Shown here piece by piece: positions 3,661 through 9,522 of a DNA stretch of 64,000 bases (positions are counted from its first letter, which is position 1; every line of letters starts with the position of its first letter). The notes under the pieces were generated by a model. The model had not been told where the DNA came from. It saw nothing but the letters and a program-made list of their open reading frames with translations, and ran no database searches. The DNA is from Clavibacter sp. A6099. Lineage in GTDB: Bacteria > Actinomycetota > Actinomycetes > Actinomycetales > Microbacteriaceae. The DNA lies in contig NZ_CP083439.1 of the NCBI RefSeq assembly GCF_021919125.1, positions 2,542,001 to 2,606,000 of the forward strand. Direction: 5' to 3'. Made by a program: the position numbers and the translations under genes.

Positions 3661-3776
3661 CGGGCCGCCCCGCCGTGACCCGGACGGGGCCTCGCCGTCC
3701 CGGATCCGCCGCCGTAGCCTGGCGGTACGCGACCACCGCCCCGGCCGCGACTCCCGGCCCTCGACGAGGAGGCCTC

Positions 3777-4856
3777 ATGACCGACCGGCTCGACGGACCC
3801 GACGACGCGCTCGCCCGGCGCCTCCGCGACGACCCCGAGGCCGCGCGCCGTCTCGAGGAGCTGCGACGCCGCGCCTACGGCCGGGACGGATCCACGGCGC
3901 CGCTCGTCGAGATCCCCGCCGACCTCCGCGCGCGCACGGGCTACGACGCGGACGAGCTGCCGGCGCCGCTCGTCGCCCTGCTCGCGGAGGAGGCGCGGCT
4001 CGTCGACGAGGGCGCCGCGCTGCTGGCGTCCGAGCGTCCGGCGGCCGATGCCGCGCGGGCCGCGCAGGCGGACGCGGGAGCGCGATCCGGAGACGCCGCC
4101 GAGGCGGCCGCTCCACGCCGGCCACGCGCCCGCGGGATCCTCGTGATGGTCGTCGCGGGCCTCGTCGTGCTCGCCGGTCTCGGCACCGCGGCGGCCGTGG
4201 GGTCGCTCGACGCCGGATCCACCACCTCGACGCCCCCGACCGCCGAGGGCGTCGGATCCGCCGTCACCTCGACCGCCACCCCGCGCGGCCAGGCGATGGG
4301 CACGCCGGACGGCCGACGCGGATCCGTCGTCCCCGACTTCACGGCGGATCCGCCCGTCCGGGTCCCGATGACCGACGCCGAGCTGGCCGAGGACCTGCAG
4401 GTCCGCGCCGACCGGGCCTGGGACATGGTGCTCGAGCAGCAGCCCGACGCGGTGCGGCCGGACGTGGGGACGGAGCGGGTGGTCGACGAGGAGGACTACG
4501 TCGATCAGCAGGTGGCCTGCCTGCGGGACGCGGGGATCACGGCGTCCGTGATCGGCCAGGACAGCTACAGCCTCACCGACGCGGATCCGGTCACCGTGTA
4601 CACCTGCCAGGTCCGGTTCCCCCAGCGCGAGGCCGGCCCGCGCACCGACGCCGAGCTCGCCTACATCCACGACTACTACGTCTCCTACCTGATCCCCTGC
4701 TACGCCGCGGAGGGGAGGCCGTACGAGGGTGACGTCCCCGCCGTCGACGACTTCATCGCCGACGTGCGCGCCGAGCGGCCCTGGACCCCCTTCCCCGACG
4801 TGATGGACGGCGGGCTGGCGGCGGCGTGCCCGGTGCTCCCCGCTGCGTACCGGTGA
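3777..4856 (+). CDS. Membrane-anchored protein, first of a tandem paralogous pair
   Basis: 359 residues, no known family. Residues 1-80 form a cytosolic segment (LARRLRDDPEAARRLEELRRRAYG, then ELPAPLVALLAEEARLVDEGAALL). One membrane helix, ILVMVVAGLVVLAGLGTAAAVG, follows at about 122-143, then a Thr/Ser/Pro-rich linker and an outer domain with three paired Cys-containing blocks (VACLRDAG, YTCQVRF, YLIPCYA) and the signature IHDYYVSYLIPCYAAEGRPYEG. A strong GAGGAGGCC site precedes the ATG. The next gene overlaps it by 4 nt and repeats the same layout. Confidence 0.75.
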   Translation: MTDRLDGPDDALARRLRDDPEAARRLEELRRRAYGRDGSTAPLVEIPADLRARTGYDADELPAPLVALLAEEARLVDEGAALLASERPAADAARAAQADAGARSGDAAEAAAPRRPRARGILVMVVAGLVVLAGLGTAAAVGSLDAGSTTSTPPTAEGVGSAVTSTATPRGQAMGTPDGRRGSVVPDFTADPPVRVPMTDAELAEDLQVRADRAWDMVLEQQPDAVRPDVGTERVVDEEDYVDQQVACLRDAGITASVIGQDSYSLTDADPVTVYTCQVRFPQREAGPRTDAELAYIHDYYVSYLIPCYAAEGRPYEGDVPAVDDFIADVRAERPWTPFPDVMDGGLAAACPVLPAAYR

Positions 4857-5917
4857 CGACTCCGGGCTCGCCCGCCGACGCCCTGGGTCGACGGCTGCGG
4901 GACGACCCGGACGCCGCTCGCGCCCTCGACGCCCTCCGGCGCGCCGCATACGGTCGCGAGGACGGAGACGCTCCGCACGTGGGGGTGCCCGAGGAGATCC
5001 GGCTGGCAGCCGGGATCGAGGTCGACGCGCTCCCGGCACCGCTCGTCGCGCTGCTGGTCGCGGAGCACCGCCTCGTCGGCGAGGGCCGGGAGCTGCTCGC
5101 CGCCGATGCGCGGACGACCCCGCGCGCGTCGGAGGACGTCCCGACCGCGGCCGCGGAGACCGCGGATCCGCGCGCGCACCCGCCCGCCCCGCGCCGCCGT
5201 CGCCTCCTCCGCCCCGGCCCGGTCGCCGCGGTGCTCGCGGGCGGGCTCCTCCTCGTCGGGCTCGGCACCGCATCCGCGGCCGGCCTCCTCTCCGACGACG
5301 ACAGCTGGCGATCGCAGGAGCCGACCTCGACGCCCGGCCCGCCGAGCACGCCGGATCCCCGCATCGGCACGCCCGTGCCCGCGTTCACGGAGGAACCGCC
5401 GGCGAGGCTGCGCGAGGACCTCACCGACGTCGAGACCGCGCAGGCGCTCCGGGAGAGCGCCGACTCCCTCTGGGACCGGGTGCTCCTCGAGCGTCCCGAC
5501 GCCGTGCGCCCGGATCTGCCCGTCGAGCGCGTCCTCGACGGCGAGGAGTGGGTCAGGCAGCAGGCCGCGTGCCTGGGCGAGTCGGGGGTGCGCGTCCAGG
5601 TCATCGGGACGGGCGAGGACACCCGGCTGGGCGCCCACTCCGCGGATGTCGCCGTGGAGTACGCCTGCTCGGTGCGCTTCCCGACCACGCCCGGCGGCCC
5701 GTTGACGGACGCCGCGCTCGGCTGGCTGCACGACTACTACGTCGACTTCCTCATCCCCTGCTACGCGTCCGAGGGCGAGCCGTTCGAGGGCGAGGTCCTG
5801 GATCGGGAGGCGTTCATCGCCTCGTCCCGCGCCGGGGATCCCTGGCAGCCGTACGTCGCGACGCGCGACGGCATGCTCGAGTCACGCTGCTCGCAGGCGC
5901 CCGCTGGCCTCCGCTGA
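4853..5917 (+). CDS. Membrane-anchored protein, second of the tandem paralogous pair
   Basis: 354 residues. The GTG start overlaps the previous stop as GTGA, so translation is coupled. It has the same architecture as its neighbour: LGRRLRDDPDAARALDALRRAAYG, ALPAPLVALLVAEHRLVGEGRELL, one membrane helix near residues 120-142, and an outer domain with AACLGESG, YACSVRF and LHDYYVDFLIPCYASEGEPFEG. The pair must have arisen by duplication. The extracellular Cys pairs suggest disulfides. No function can be assigned. Two different copies kept in one operon suggest a heterodimer. Confidence 0.75.
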   Translation: MTTPGSPADALGRRLRDDPDAARALDALRRAAYGREDGDAPHVGVPEEIRLAAGIEVDALPAPLVALLVAEHRLVGEGRELLAADARTTPRASEDVPTAAAETADPRAHPPAPRRRRLLRPGPVAAVLAGGLLLVGLGTASAAGLLSDDDSWRSQEPTSTPGPPSTPDPRIGTPVPAFTEEPPARLREDLTDVETAQALRESADSLWDRVLLERPDAVRPDLPVERVLDGEEWVRQQAACLGESGVRVQVIGTGEDTRLGAHSADVAVEYACSVRFPTTPGGPLTDAALGWLHDYYVDFLIPCYASEGEPFEGEVLDREAFIASSRAGDPWQPYVATRDGMLESRCSQAPAGLR

Positions 5918-5934
5918 CCCGCCGCCGCACCTGC

Positions 5935-5962
5935 TGAGGACGCTTCTCAGCGCGGTTAGGGT
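5935..5962 (+). promoter_or_regulatory. Zur-like operator overlapping a TANNNT promoter
   Basis: TGAGGACGCTTCTCA at 5935-5949 is an imperfect palindrome. It agrees at 10 of 15 positions with TGAAAATGATTTTCA, the type of site bound by actinobacterial Zur zinc repressors. A -10 box TAGGGT follows at 5957-5962, so the site lies in the -35/-10 spacer, where a repressor would block polymerase. Regulation by Zur is inferred from the motif and from the His-rich permease downstream. Confidence 0.5.
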
Positions 5963-5969
5963 TGAAGCC

Positions 5970-6017
5970 GTGTGCGCCCCCATCGGACCCCGGCCCCGCG
6001 CCACCGGTCCGCGATGA
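5970..6017 (+). CDS. Possible leaderless leader peptide VCAPIGPRPRATGPR
   Basis: A GTG at 5970 lies seven bases after the -10 box, where a leaderless start is expected. It opens a 15-codon frame that ends at TGA 6015-6017, overlapping the permease ATG at 6014 as ATGA. The permease ATG has no ribosome-binding site, so it could rely on reinitiation after this peptide. The alternative is that GTG 5972, in frame with the permease and nine bases from the -10 box, is the real start. Seen: the codons and spacing. Inferred: its use. Confidence 0.35.
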   Translation: MCAPIGPRPRATGPR

Positions 6018-7237
6018 CGGATCGGCACACACCGTGGGCGCCGGACGACGACGACGCGTCCCCCTTCGACCGGCGCGCGCGCCCGCGCCGCGAGCGGGCA
6101 CCCCGCGCACGACGGACCCGTGAGGACCGGACCGCGGACGGATCCCCCGCCGCGACCGCCACCGCGACGGCGACCGCCACCGCCGCCCGCACCCGCCAGG
6201 ACCACGACCACCCGCACGACCACGACGCCCCGCGCTCCACCCTCGCCGCCCCCGCCGGGATCCGCACCGGCCTCGCGACGGGCCTCGCCCTCGTCCTCCT
6301 GCTCCTCGCCCTCCGCGCCGCCTCCCCCGCGCTCGGCGACGGCATCCTGCCCGACCGGCTCCAGGACCTCGTCACCCTGAGCGTCAGCGTCATCGTGGAG
6401 TCGCTGCCGTTCGTGATCCTCGGCATCGTCCTGTCGATCGTCGTGCAGGTGTGGGTGCCGCCCGGCGTCATCGAGCGCCGCCTCCCCCGCAACCCGTTCG
6501 CGCGCCGCGCCTGCATCTCGTTCCTCGGCATGGCCCTGCCGGTGTGCGAGTGCGGCAACGTGCCGCTCGCGCGCGGCCTCGTGGTGCGCGGCTTCACGGT
6601 GCCGGAGTCGATCACGTTCCTGCTGGCGGCGCCGATCCTCAACCCGATCACCATCATCACGACGCACGCGGCCTTCGGCTGGGACGGCTGGATCCTCGTG
6701 GCCCGCCTGGTCGGCGGCTTCCTCATCGCGAACGTGGTCGGCTGGCTGTTCAGCCTGCACCCCGAGCCCGACCGCCTCCTCACCGACGAGTTCCGCGCCG
6801 AGTGCGCCCTCCCCGATCCGCATGCCCACGGCGGCGCGCGCGTCCGGAAGTCGATCTCGCTGTTCGGCCGCGAGGCGACGACGATCATGCCGGCGCTCGT
6901 CATCGGATCCCTGCTGGCCGGCCTCATCCAGGTCGCGGTGCCGCGCGAGGTGCTCGTCACGCTCGGCGGCAGCCCGATCCTCTCGGTGCTCGCGCTGATG
7001 CTGCTCGCGTTCGTCGTCTCGGTCTGCTCGAACGTGGACGCGTTCTTCGTGCTCTCGTTCGGATCCGTGTTCCTGCCCGGCGGCATCGTCGCCTTCCTGG
7101 TGTTCGGCCCGGTCATCGACGTGAAGATGCTCGCGCTCATGCGCACCACCTACTCGACCCGCACGCTCGTGATGATCACCTCGGTCGTCGCGCTGATCAG
7201 CCTCGCGCTGGGATGGGGTGTCAATGCCATCGCCTGA
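6014..7237 (+). CDS. UPF0718/YraQ-type permease with His-rich N-terminus
   Basis: 407 residues. The N-terminal 80 residues are polar, with an Ala-Thr repeat and a His/Asp cluster RQDHDHPHDHDAP that looks metal-binding. Eight to ten membrane helices follow. The motif LPVCECGNVPLARGL, with paired Cys, and the second-half SVCSNVDAFFVLSF are characteristic of the DUF318/UPF0718 permease family, which includes metal and metalloid transport candidates. The next gene encodes its usual partner. Together with the Zur-like box upstream, zinc or a similar metal is the likely substrate, but the direction of transport is unknown. Confidence 0.8.
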   Translation: MTDRHTPWAPDDDDASPFDRRARPRRERAPRARRTREDRTADGSPAATATATATATAARTRQDHDHPHDHDAPRSTLAAPAGIRTGLATGLALVLLLLALRAASPALGDGILPDRLQDLVTLSVSVIVESLPFVILGIVLSIVVQVWVPPGVIERRLPRNPFARRACISFLGMALPVCECGNVPLARGLVVRGFTVPESITFLLAAPILNPITIITTHAAFGWDGWILVARLVGGFLIANVVGWLFSLHPEPDRLLTDEFRAECALPDPHAHGGARVRKSISLFGREATTIMPALVIGSLLAGLIQVAVPREVLVTLGGSPILSVLALMLLAFVVSVCSNVDAFFVLSFGSVFLPGGIVAFLVFGPVIDVKMLALMRTTYSTRTLVMITSVVALISLALGWGVNAIA

Positions 7238-8123
7238 CGACCGGGAGCCCGCCGACCGGGAGCCCGCCGACCGGATGCCGACCGCCCTCCGCCGCGCCCG
7301 ACGCCGCCGCGCCGCGGGCGGCCGCGCCTCCTCCACGGTGGGCCTGGTGCTCCTCGCCGCGTGCATCGTCTCGACGCTGTGGCTGACGATCACCGGCCAG
7401 CTCGGCCTCTACATCCACCCGCGCTACTTCGTGTTCACCGGGATCATGGCGGTCATCGGCCTGGTCGCGACGGTCGCCGGGTTCGCGCTGCGCCCCGCCG
7501 ACGCCGCGGAGGAGCACGACCACGACCACGGATCCGCCGCGCTCGACGACCCCGCCGCCGGACCCGTCGAGTCCGCCGCCGCCCGCGCCTCGCTCCGCGC
7601 CCGCGTCTCCCGCGTGGCCGTCGCCGCCGTCGTCACGGTCACGGTCGTCGCCGTCCTCGTGCTCCCGCCGCGCACGCTCACCCAGAGCACCGTCACGCAG
7701 CGCGCGCTCAACTCGAGCACGGTCGCCTCCGACGCGGCGCCCGACCAGGAGCTCCTCGGCACGAACGACTTCTCCACCCTGGGCGTGAAGGACTGGTCGC
7801 AGCTGCTCGCGCAGACCACGGATCCGACCTTCTTCACCTCGAAGTCCGTCGACATCACGGGCTTCGTGAGCGCCGACCCGGACGATCCCGACGACGTCTT
7901 CTACGTCACGCGCTTCGTCGTCACCTGCTGCGCGGTCGACGCGCAGCCCGTCGGCGTGCCCGTGTACCAGCCCGGCTGGAAGTCGACGCTGCAGACCGAC
8001 GAGTGGGTGGAGGTGAAGGGGCCGTTCGCCTCGAACCCGAGCGCGAAGAGCCGGCAGCCGCTCGCCGTCATGCCGCAGGGCGTGTCGAAGGTCGACCAGC
8101 CCGCCGACCCCTACGTCTACTGA
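7218..8123 (+). CDS. TIGR03943/DUF1980 putative permease subunit
   Basis: 301 residues, overlapping the permease stop by 20 nt. Two membrane helices lie near residues 37-58 and 67-88, then comes a loop carrying EEHDHDHG, a third helix near 130-150, and an outer domain with VDITGFVSADP, YVTRFVVTCCAVDAQPVGVPVY and EWVEVKGPF. The CC pair and that order are typical of the DUF1980 family, found next to UPF0718 permeases. Both subunits here carry a His/Asp stretch, which strengthens the metal-transport reading. Start options are GTG 7218 and ATG 7224. Confidence 0.85.
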   Translation: MSMPSPDDREPADREPADRMPTALRRARRRRAAGGRASSTVGLVLLAACIVSTLWLTITGQLGLYIHPRYFVFTGIMAVIGLVATVAGFALRPADAAEEHDHDHGSAALDDPAAGPVESAAARASLRARVSRVAVAAVVTVTVVAVLVLPPRTLTQSTVTQRALNSSTVASDAAPDQELLGTNDFSTLGVKDWSQLLAQTTDPTFFTSKSVDITGFVSADPDDPDDVFYVTRFVVTCCAVDAQPVGVPVYQPGWKSTLQTDEWVEVKGPFASNPSAKSRQPLAVMPQGVSKVDQPADPYVY

Positions 8124-8130
8124 GCCGCCC

Positions 8131-9522
8131 GTGACCGACGCCCCCGCCTCCCCGCGCGCCTTCCGCCGGGCCTTCACCGCCGTGATCCTCGTGCTCGCCA
8201 TCGCCTGCGGCGGCCTGCTCGCGGTCGCCGGCAGCCAGGGGCCGCGGCTCGTGCGCACCGACGTGGATCCGCTCGCCGTCGTGCAGCAGTCCCGGCAGCG
8301 ACTCGTGCTCGCGGCCAACCGGCCGATCCAGCCGGTCGACGCCTCGCGCATCAGGATGGAGCCCGGGGCCGACTTCACCGTCGACACGCAGGCCGACCGC
8401 ATCATCATCGACTTCACCCGGCCGCTCGCCTACGACGCCGCGTACACGGTGTCGATCGACGGCGTGCAGGGCGTCGGCGGCGGCCCCGCGTCCGACCTCG
8501 CGACGTCGTTCCGCACGGGCGACCCCGGCATGTACGTCCTCGTCCGCGGCGGCGAGCAGCAGGCGGACCGGATCCTCCGGCAGAGCGTCGCCGGCGGCGG
8601 CCAGGGCGCGAGCGACGAGGTGTTCGAGGCCACGAAGATCCAGGAGTACGCGGTCGTCGGGCAGTCGCTCGTGGTCGCGACGCTCCAGGACGACGGCACG
8701 AACGGCCTCGTGATCGCGGGGCTGGACGGATCCGGCCAGGTCGACCTGCCGCTCCCCGGCCGCGGCACGCTCCAGGACCTCCATGCCGAGGACACCGGGA
8801 CCACGATCGGCTTCCGCTTCACGAGCACGGACGGCGGCCCGTACGACGACACCCTCATGGTCGACGACGTCGGCGCCGGGGCGACGCCGACGCCCGTGCT
8901 CGGGCTCGACGGGCAGGCGATCAGCGCGCAGGCGTGGGGCTTCGTGCCCGGGCGCCCGCAGCTCGTCGCGCACGGGCAGGACGGCGACCTCTACCTGGTC
9001 ACGGTCGACGGGTCGTCGCCCATCGTCCCGCTCGGCCGTCACGGCACGCTCGGCCCGTTCTCCGCGGACGGCACGCGGCTCGCGGTCACGGATCCCGGCT
9101 CGACGACCGAGATCGACCTGCGCACCGCCCAGCAGACGACGCTGCCCACCGAGACCGGCGGCGCCGACCTCCAGTACGACGGCGCGATCTCGTTCGTGCC
9201 CGGCGACGACGGCGCGGTGCTCCGCGTGCGCACTGCGCTCGATCCCGCGACGGGCACCGCGACGCAGCGCCTCGTCGTCGTCCGCGACGGGACGGCCAGC
9301 GACGTCTACGTGCCCGCGGACCCGGCCACCCGCATCACGGGCCTCTCCGTCACCCCGAACGGGCGCTTCGCCCTGCTCGAGACGGTGCCGGATCCGGCGC
9401 GCGGCGCCAGCGACGACTACCCGCGCAACCCGCGCGACACGTCGGTGACCACGCTCCTCGTCGAGCTCGCGACCGGCACGGTGACCCGCAGCGTCGCCGG
9501 TTTCGAGGTCACGATCGGCTGA
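8131..9522 (+). CDS. Membrane-anchored protein with Ig-like and beta-propeller-like repeats
   Basis: 463 residues, 7 nt after the previous stop and so in the same operon. One N-terminal membrane helix (AFTAVILVLAIACGGLLAVAG) is followed by a SbsA/Ig-like segment (RLVLAANRPIQPVDASRIRMEPG ... LAYDAAYTVSIDGVQG). The remaining 300 residues have recurring motifs such as LVIAGLDGSG, DLYLVTVDGSS and LGPFSADGTRLAV, like TolB/WD40-type propeller blades. It should face outward. Its place behind the two permease subunits suggests a role in metal handling at the surface, but no direct evidence exists in the sequence. Confidence 0.65.
   Translation: MTDAPASPRAFRRAFTAVILVLAIACGGLLAVAGSQGPRLVRTDVDPLAVVQQSRQRLVLAANRPIQPVDASRIRMEPGADFTVDTQADRIIIDFTRPLAYDAAYTVSIDGVQGVGGGPASDLATSFRTGDPGMYVLVRGGEQQADRILRQSVAGGGQGASDEVFEATKIQEYAVVGQSLVVATLQDDGTNGLVIAGLDGSGQVDLPLPGRGTLQDLHAEDTGTTIGFRFTSTDGGPYDDTLMVDDVGAGATPTPVLGLDGQAISAQAWGFVPGRPQLVAHGQDGDLYLVTVDGSSPIVPLGRHGTLGPFSADGTRLAVTDPGSTTEIDLRTAQQTTLPTETGGADLQYDGAISFVPGDDGAVLRVRTALDPATGTATQRLVVVRDGTASDVYVPADPATRITGLSVTPNGRFALLETVPDPARGASDDYPRNPRDTSVTTLLVELATGTVTRSVAGFEVTIG

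What the first reader, a model, noticed from the sequence alone, without database searches (positions are those of the whole stretch)
5935..8123. Zur-like box, leaderless Cys-containing leader ORF and two His-rich permease subunits
TGAGGACGCTTCTCA overlaps the promoter of an operon whose first two membrane proteins both carry His/Asp clusters (DHDHPHDHD and EEHDHDHG). Between promoter and permease is a possible 15-codon leader peptide starting exactly where leaderless starts fall, and ending ATGA on a permease ATG that has no ribosome-binding site. This suggests a zinc-responsive operon with translational coupling through a leader peptide. The third gene, a propeller-like surface protein, may be a new component.
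Basis: partly seen in the sequence, partly recalled or inferred. Interest (0 to 1): 0.75.

Follow-up and report, generated by a model that had tools for sequence, protein, structure and literature searches.

The report
Zinc-switched operon with leaderless start ORF
In a plant-associated bacterium, three membrane proteins of unknown job appear to be made only when zinc runs short, and the first of them seems to be translated by a ribosome that begins on a tiny reading frame at the very front of the message.

Summary
The window is from Clavibacter. TGAGGACGCTTCTCA (5935-5949) is the operator type found in that genome upstream of znuA, a COG0523-like gene and likely metallophore genes. A matrix from 27 sites of other genes scores it 19.3; the runner-up in 464 kb scores 9.0. 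It is kept in 15 of 17 congeners; two lost it but kept the promoter. The 15-codon leader ORF looks real: RTG start 7 nt behind the -10, 44 nt to the permease ATG, 17 of 17. Its amino acids show no purifying selection and the Cys at codon 2 is private to this genome, so it looks like a translation-coupling device, not a sensing peptide. The permease is ArsP_1, the second gene TIGR03943 (a pair called ycgRQ/scfAB elsewhere, function unknown). The third encodes a membrane-anchored beta-propeller with no family; it follows the pair in 52 of 52 fetched loci from 47 other genera. Some relatives hold the trio behind znu-zur or beside znuA, but most loci outside Clavibacter lack the box. Zinc control in Clavibacter is well supported by sequence; coupling and zinc transport are inferred. 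Nothing was measured.

The parts
5933..5951 (.). Zur-type operator, 19-bp dyad; 15-bp core 5935-5949 covers the -35 region
   Evidence: core conserved in 15 of 17 congeners
5934..5939 (+). -35-like hexamer CTGAGG, 17 nt before the -10 (inferred)
   Evidence: sequence; not reported by the consensus scan
5957..5962 (+). -10 element TAGGGT (TANNNT type, recalled as usual in actinobacteria); transcript start inferred at G5970
   Evidence: TTAGGGT in 16 of 17, TTATGGT in 1; 7-nt spacer to RTG in 17 of 17
5970..6017 (+). leaderless 15-codon leader ORF, TGA overlapping the permease ATG (ATGA)
   Evidence: start, length and overlap in 17 of 17; GTG 16, ATG 1
6014..7237 (+). ArsP_1 permease (407 aa), no Shine-Dalgarno
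   Evidence: PF03773 183.6 bits
6200..6226 (+). His/Asp cluster DHDHPHDHD in the permease N-terminal segment
   Evidence: a His cluster in 17 of 17 Clavibacter, sequence varies
7218..8123 (+). TIGR03943 putative permease subunit (start GTG 7218 or ATG 7224)
   Evidence: TIGR03943 175.9 bits, DUF1980 N and C domains
7509..7532 (+). EEHDHDHG cluster in the TIGR03943 protein
   Evidence: 2-6 His in this loop in 17 of 17 Clavibacter
8131..9522 (+). third gene: one N-terminal membrane helix, a beta-rich segment and a beta-propeller; no Pfam or NCBIfam family
   Evidence: no hits; synteny; pLDDT 92.5; propeller matches

Best explanation
A Zur-repressed three-gene membrane operon. With enough zinc, Zur sits on the dyad at 5933-5951 and covers the -35 region. 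When zinc falls Zur leaves, and transcription starts at or next to G5970, so the message begins with the GTG of the leader ORF. A ribosome starts there without a Shine-Dalgarno sequence, reads 15 codons, stops at TGA 6015-6017 and restarts on the overlapping ATG 6014 of the permease, which has no Shine-Dalgarno of its own. The permease (ArsP_1), its TIGR03943 partner and an anchored, probably extracytoplasmic beta-propeller then form one membrane complex that serves zinc acquisition or salvage. Shown by sequence: operator, its regulon, conservation, the fixed trio. Inferred: Zur as the binder, start of transcription, coupling, complex, and substrate.
For: Matrix from 27 non-permease sites scores the box 19.3, next best 9.0 in 464 kb. 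Same motif in this genome at znuA, a CobW_C (COG0523-like) gene, an NRPS/AMP-ligase pair and a secreted protein. A FUR-family gene lies beside znuB. Box in 15 of 17 congeners. Trio downstream of znuB-zur in L127 and of znuA, znuB and zur in L174, L239, L240; next to znuA in L213, L233, L238: 6 of 80 named loci, plus L127. Leader: 17 of 17 for spacer 7, 44 nt and RTG; no in-frame ATG, GTG or TTG between 5972 and the permease ATG in 16 of 17, the exception being GTG 5972 of this genome. Trio order in 52 of 52.
Against: No binding, expression or ribosome data. 44 of 52 other loci have no box at 8 of 10; 11 of 31 neighbour proteins scanned are RNase E/G, a place without zinc link. Named ArsP_1 relatives are exporters, though the matches are far below cut-off. 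A second FUR-family protein could bind instead. The box scores below every training site (22.8-30.0). The leader layout is not enriched: 4 against 3 control in 464 kb. The propeller has 3 His in residues 36-463 and no conserved His or Cys.
Confidence: 0.62

Rival explanations
1. Zinc control is real but the leader ORF is only a fixed-length 5' segment: ribosomes bind the short leader and reach ATG 6014 directly, with no coupling.
For: No amino-acid level selection in the leader; all three codon positions are similarly constrained (12, 12 and 16 minor cells, about 6% of 663) against 57 of 320 (18%) at permease third positions (L018 left out of the permease count).
Against: RTG exactly where a leaderless start falls in 17 of 17, no indel in 44 nt although a 5-nt insertion lies just upstream in one genome and permease lengths vary, and a stop-start overlap; no RNA structure found to explain the constraint (z 0.23; covariation term +0.4).
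Confidence: 0.25
2. The leader is a sensing peptide (Cys-responsive or stalling), like polycysteine leaderless ORFs of mycobacteria.
For: Cys at codon 2 here; Pro/Arg-rich sequence.
Against: Cys at that codon in 1 of 17; Pro and Arg are expected at this GC content (inference); synonymous fraction within the chance range.
Confidence: 0.05
3. The dyad is bound by another regulator, such as the catalase-linked FUR-family protein, or an iron regulator.
For: Two FUR-family proteins in the genome; NRPS, AMP-ligase and FecCD neighbours of some sites could be iron genes.
Against: The same motif precedes znuA and a COG0523-like gene; the other FUR-family protein is nearest PerR models, below their cut-offs.
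Confidence: 0.12
4. The trio is an exporter (ArsP-like) or an envelope-stress system recruited by Zur in Clavibacter and a few other lineages, not a zinc importer.
For: ArsP_1 relatives with names are efflux proteins; B. subtilis ycgRQ is under envelope-stress sigma factors according to PMC5584981 (passages); box absent in 44 of 52 loci.
Against: Repeated placement with znu or zur genes in three named genera, Plantibacter, Microbacterium and Homoserinibacter; His clusters in both subunits.
Confidence: 0.4

Closest known systems
Actinobacterial Zur regulons (PMC6103462, passages)
   Same: Zur control of znuABC, COG0523 and metallophore genes through a palindromic box
   Different: The passages seen, not the whole table, name no ArsP_1/TIGR03943/propeller trio
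YcgR-YcgQ / ScfA-ScfB pair (PMC5584981, passages)
   Same: Linked eight-helix and two-helix membrane proteins of unknown function; that they are ArsP_1 and TIGR03943 rests on recall and on TIGR03943 ringing in B. subtilis
   Different: Described there as a two-gene operon; no zinc link in the passages; here a third propeller gene is fixed
AztD zinc metallochaperone (PMC6689063, passages)
   Same: Extracytoplasmic beta-propeller in a zinc-starvation setting
   Different: AztD has conserved zinc-binding residues and eight blades; the third protein has no conserved His or Cys and a membrane helix plus a further N-terminal segment
Leaderless polycysteine short ORFs of mycobacteria (Canestrari 2020; seen only as a reference in PMC9031893; text not held)
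   Same: Leaderless short ORF heading an operon
   Different: No conserved Cys; overlaps the next start; peptide not conserved

Membership tests
Zur regulon | Operator matches sites of zinc genes in the same genome | tested here: met
Zur regulon | Operator overlaps the promoter and is conserved | tested here: met
   15 of 17; the promoter itself is inferred
Zur regulon | Zinc-dependent Zur binding and zinc response | not testable with these tools
   no bench data
Leaderless mRNA | Start codon at the transcript 5' end | tested here: inconclusive
   spacing 7 nt in 17 of 17; 5' end not mapped
Leaderless mRNA | No Shine-Dalgarno before the permease | tested here: met
   window: longest anti-SD run 3; the 18 nt of all 17 printed and read by eye
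Cys-responsive leader attenuator | Conserved Cys codons in the leader | tested here: not met
   1 of 17 at codon 2
ArsP_1 (PF03773) | Score over Pfam cut-off | tested here: met
   183.6 against 32.3
SaoE or SO_0444 exporters | Score over NCBIfam cut-off | tested here: not met
   78.1 against 325; 66.5 against 300
TIGR03943 | Score over NCBIfam cut-off | tested here: met
   175.9 against 88.8
AztD | Conserved zinc-ligand His residues | tested here: not met
   no column with His or Cys at 60% among 53 sequences; no AztD sequence was aligned

The most novel reading that the evidence does not exclude
The permease, TIGR03943 protein and anchored propeller form a new class of three-part zinc-starvation transporter, which would give the widespread but unexplained YcgRQ/ScfAB pair its function, and in Clavibacter it is switched on through a leaderless uORF that serves purely as a ribosome loading ramp.
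Probability: 0.3. Interest if true: 0.72.

Novelty: new variant of a known kind. Interest (0 to 1): 0.5.

Why it matters
The ArsP_1/TIGR03943 pair is found linked in Streptococcus, Enterococcus and Bacillus and matters for Streptococcus fitness in tissue (PMC5584981, passages), yet has no assigned function. A zinc operator over it, its place beside znu and zur genes, and a fixed propeller partner make a direct, cheap test possible. The leader is a clean natural case of a leaderless uORF kept for its position and not its peptide, with a built-in contrast: two genomes that lost the operator but kept promoter and leader.

Tried and rejected
RNA structure in the leader: single-sequence fold no better than shuffles (z 0.23); consensus fold has a covariation term of +0.4, and 1 of 18 pairs has a two-sided change. 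Cys or peptide sensing: not supported. GTG 5972 as a leaderless permease start: present in 1 of 17, so rejected as the general start. AztD identity of the secreted protein at L033: no Pfam, NCBIfam or PDB sequence match; the script label 'AztDlike' was mine from reading the sequence. Solved structures for TIGR03943 and the permease: none by sequence up to E 1. TIGR03943 model: pLDDT 79.3, C-terminal part resembles OB folds weakly; nothing functional follows. PDB profile search of the third protein: 9 matches up to E 1, best 0.022, some of them propellers, two 'Tencon'. Literature, open-licence papers only: no paper holds TIGR03943; DUF1980 with zinc, one S. aureus lipoprotein table; COG3689 or COG0701, four, judged by listing only; YcgQ/YcgR, nine listed, one opened; DUF318/predicted permease/zinc/Zur, three, judged by listing; Clavibacter/Zur, ten listed of 295, none of the ten holds 'Clavibacter' and the rest were not seen; leaderless uORF coupling, four listed, none opened; propeller/zinc, ten listed of 87, two opened; Cys-responsive leaderless, seven listed, one opened. 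PMC2770081 (passages) has no 'permease' in its text but notes WD40 propeller proteins beside znuABC and COG0523.

Full report
Where it is. The window is base 2,542,001-2,606,000 of contig 1 of a 3.33-Mb genome. Three genes lie head to tail: 6014-7237, 7218-8123 and 8131-9522. The first is an ArsP_1 permease (183.6 bits), the second TIGR03943 (175.9 bits), the third matches no Pfam or NCBIfam model at E 0.001.

The operator. TGAGGACGCTTCTCA is modest evidence alone. Four further tests decide. (1) Of 17 Clavibacter genomes with upstream DNA (the window's included), 15 keep the core with at most one change; L014 (G003, whose contig length fits a record titled C. michiganensis subsp. tessellarius) and L015 (G006) lack it but keep TTAGGGT and the leader. 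(2) In 18 Clavibacter genomes TGAGNANNNTTNTCA gives 99 strand matches, the reversed control 3. In the window's genome alone a looser search, one mismatch allowed, gives 15 strand matches against 4 control, and several of the 15 lie inside frames without any sign of function. (3) Of 24 loci around such sites, 8 have the secreted protein of L033, 3 the CobW_C gene, 5 the NRPS/AMP-ligase pair and 2 the permease; L069, L079, L080, L083 and L085 matched none of my queries and L082 only a 45%-identical COG0523-like stretch 0.7 kb away. L082 proved to lie between an ABC-3 permease and an ABC ATPase, L069 near FecCD, L083 near a subtilase. The znuA gene of this genome has TGAGACTGGTTATCA upstream. (4) A matrix from 27 sites not next to the permease gives 19.3 for the permease box (training range 22.8-30.0) and 9.0 for the runner-up in 464 kb. 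Most training sites are hits of a pattern that the box also fits, and the box scores below every training site, so it may be a weaker operator.

The regulator. Two FUR-family proteins exist. One lies beside znuB and is followed by L28, L33 and S14 (read from the ORF list), with znuA further upstream; the other lies beside a catalase-like frame (by eye) and is nearest PerR models though under their cut-offs. I take the first as Zur.

The leader. In 17 of 17 genomes the -10 is followed after exactly 7 nt by RTG (GTG 16, ATG 1), and 44 nt from that start comes the permease ATG, with TGA overlapping as ATGA; the 18 nt before that ATG show no Shine-Dalgarno by eye. One genome (L018) has a 5-nt insertion between box and -10 and permease lengths vary from 399 to 425 aa, so the lack of indels is not for want of them. 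The peptide is not conserved as a peptide: 16 synonymous and 24 non-synonymous changes, fraction 0.40 against 0.34 expected (0.20-0.50), while permease codons 2-21 show 50 and 54, 0.48 against 0.26 (0.17-0.34; 16 genomes, L018 left out). Relatedness of the genomes was not modelled. No RNA structure is supported. A mechanical scan of 464 kb finds 4 such arrangements against 3 with a reversed -10, so the layout alone means little; conservation is the evidence.

The trio. TIGR03943 is found in 143 of 299 genomes of the family. I fetched 52 loci from 47 of the 48 other genera with a match (one genus had no listed place): all 52 have permease and TIGR03943, 50 have the third gene downstream by tblastn, and L118 and L152 have it on reading the translation. 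Of 80 named loci, 79 hold a third-gene match (L246 does not); in 74 of the 79 it begins within 160 nt of the TIGR03943 match end, in five (L206, L216, L217, L226, L249) the start I computed does not. The 80 are the best of at least 577, so they are close relatives. The third protein, predicted with 53 sequences in all, has mean pLDDT 92.5: one N-terminal helix (8-35), a beta-rich segment and a propeller-like set of strands. Foldseek returns many propellers, TolB third, with query TM-scores of 0.18-0.47 in the 50 rows listed. Asp146 and Asp428 are conserved in 90% or more; no His or Cys column reaches 60%.

Zinc link outside Clavibacter. L127 (G062) has znuB, zur and the permease in one row. 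L174 (Plantibacter) and L239, L240 (Microbacterium) have znuA, znuB and zur upstream on the same strand; L213, L233 (both Homoserinibacter) and L238 have znuA on the other strand just upstream: 6 of 80; weak hits in L175, L244 and L247 (22-27% identity) were not counted. Among 31 neighbour proteins scanned, 11 are RNase E/G, 3 ZnuA and 1 FUR. A Zur-type box at 8 of 10 or better stands within 400 nt of the permease match in 8 of 52 loci, control 0 of 52; five of the eight (L118, L123, L126, L147, L148) look convincing to me. L169 has a perfect TGATAATGATTATCA further up, before a frame that reads like an ABC ATPase, and is not among the eight. So zinc control has been joined to the trio in several lineages but is not general.

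Mechanism and limits. Zur repression over the -35 and leaderless start with stop-start coupling is the simplest reading. What the complex carries is open: family members with names export metals or metalloids, while Zur control points to acquisition. None of the papers found gives a function (listings or passages only).

Noticed in passing
L270:4046-4351 (G006) and L271:6108-6332 (G013): A Zur-type box stands 24 nt before an ORF of 89 or 62 aa made of 3 or 2 tandem repeats (IAGDDVLSAPQGPGTNALVHNPFA...); in L271 a YcaO cyclodehydratase gene lies about 4 kb downstream on the same strand. Looks like a zinc-controlled multi-core RiPP cluster.
   Followed up: partly
L037 (G000:C1:306989): Zur-type box between an NRPS-like frame (by eye) and a dihydroxybenzoate-AMP-ligase-like gene, a likely zinc-controlled metallophore cluster.
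   Followed up: partly
L033:1529-2839: Secreted-looking protein with no family, 13 nt behind the Zur-type box TGAGAACCATTCTCA.
   Followed up: partly
window 63486-61879, - strand: MmgE/PrpD gene preceded by a 16-codon ORF 6 nt behind TACGCT, ending GTGA on the gene's GTG; conservation not checked.
   Followed up: partly
L014 and L015: Two congeners lost the operator but kept -10 and leader; their TIGR03943 His loops are identical in the stretch printed, which fits a single loss.
   Followed up: partly
window 3675-4856 and 4826-5917: Two adjacent similar-looking proteins upstream of the operon; no Pfam match for the second, the first not scanned.
   Followed up: no
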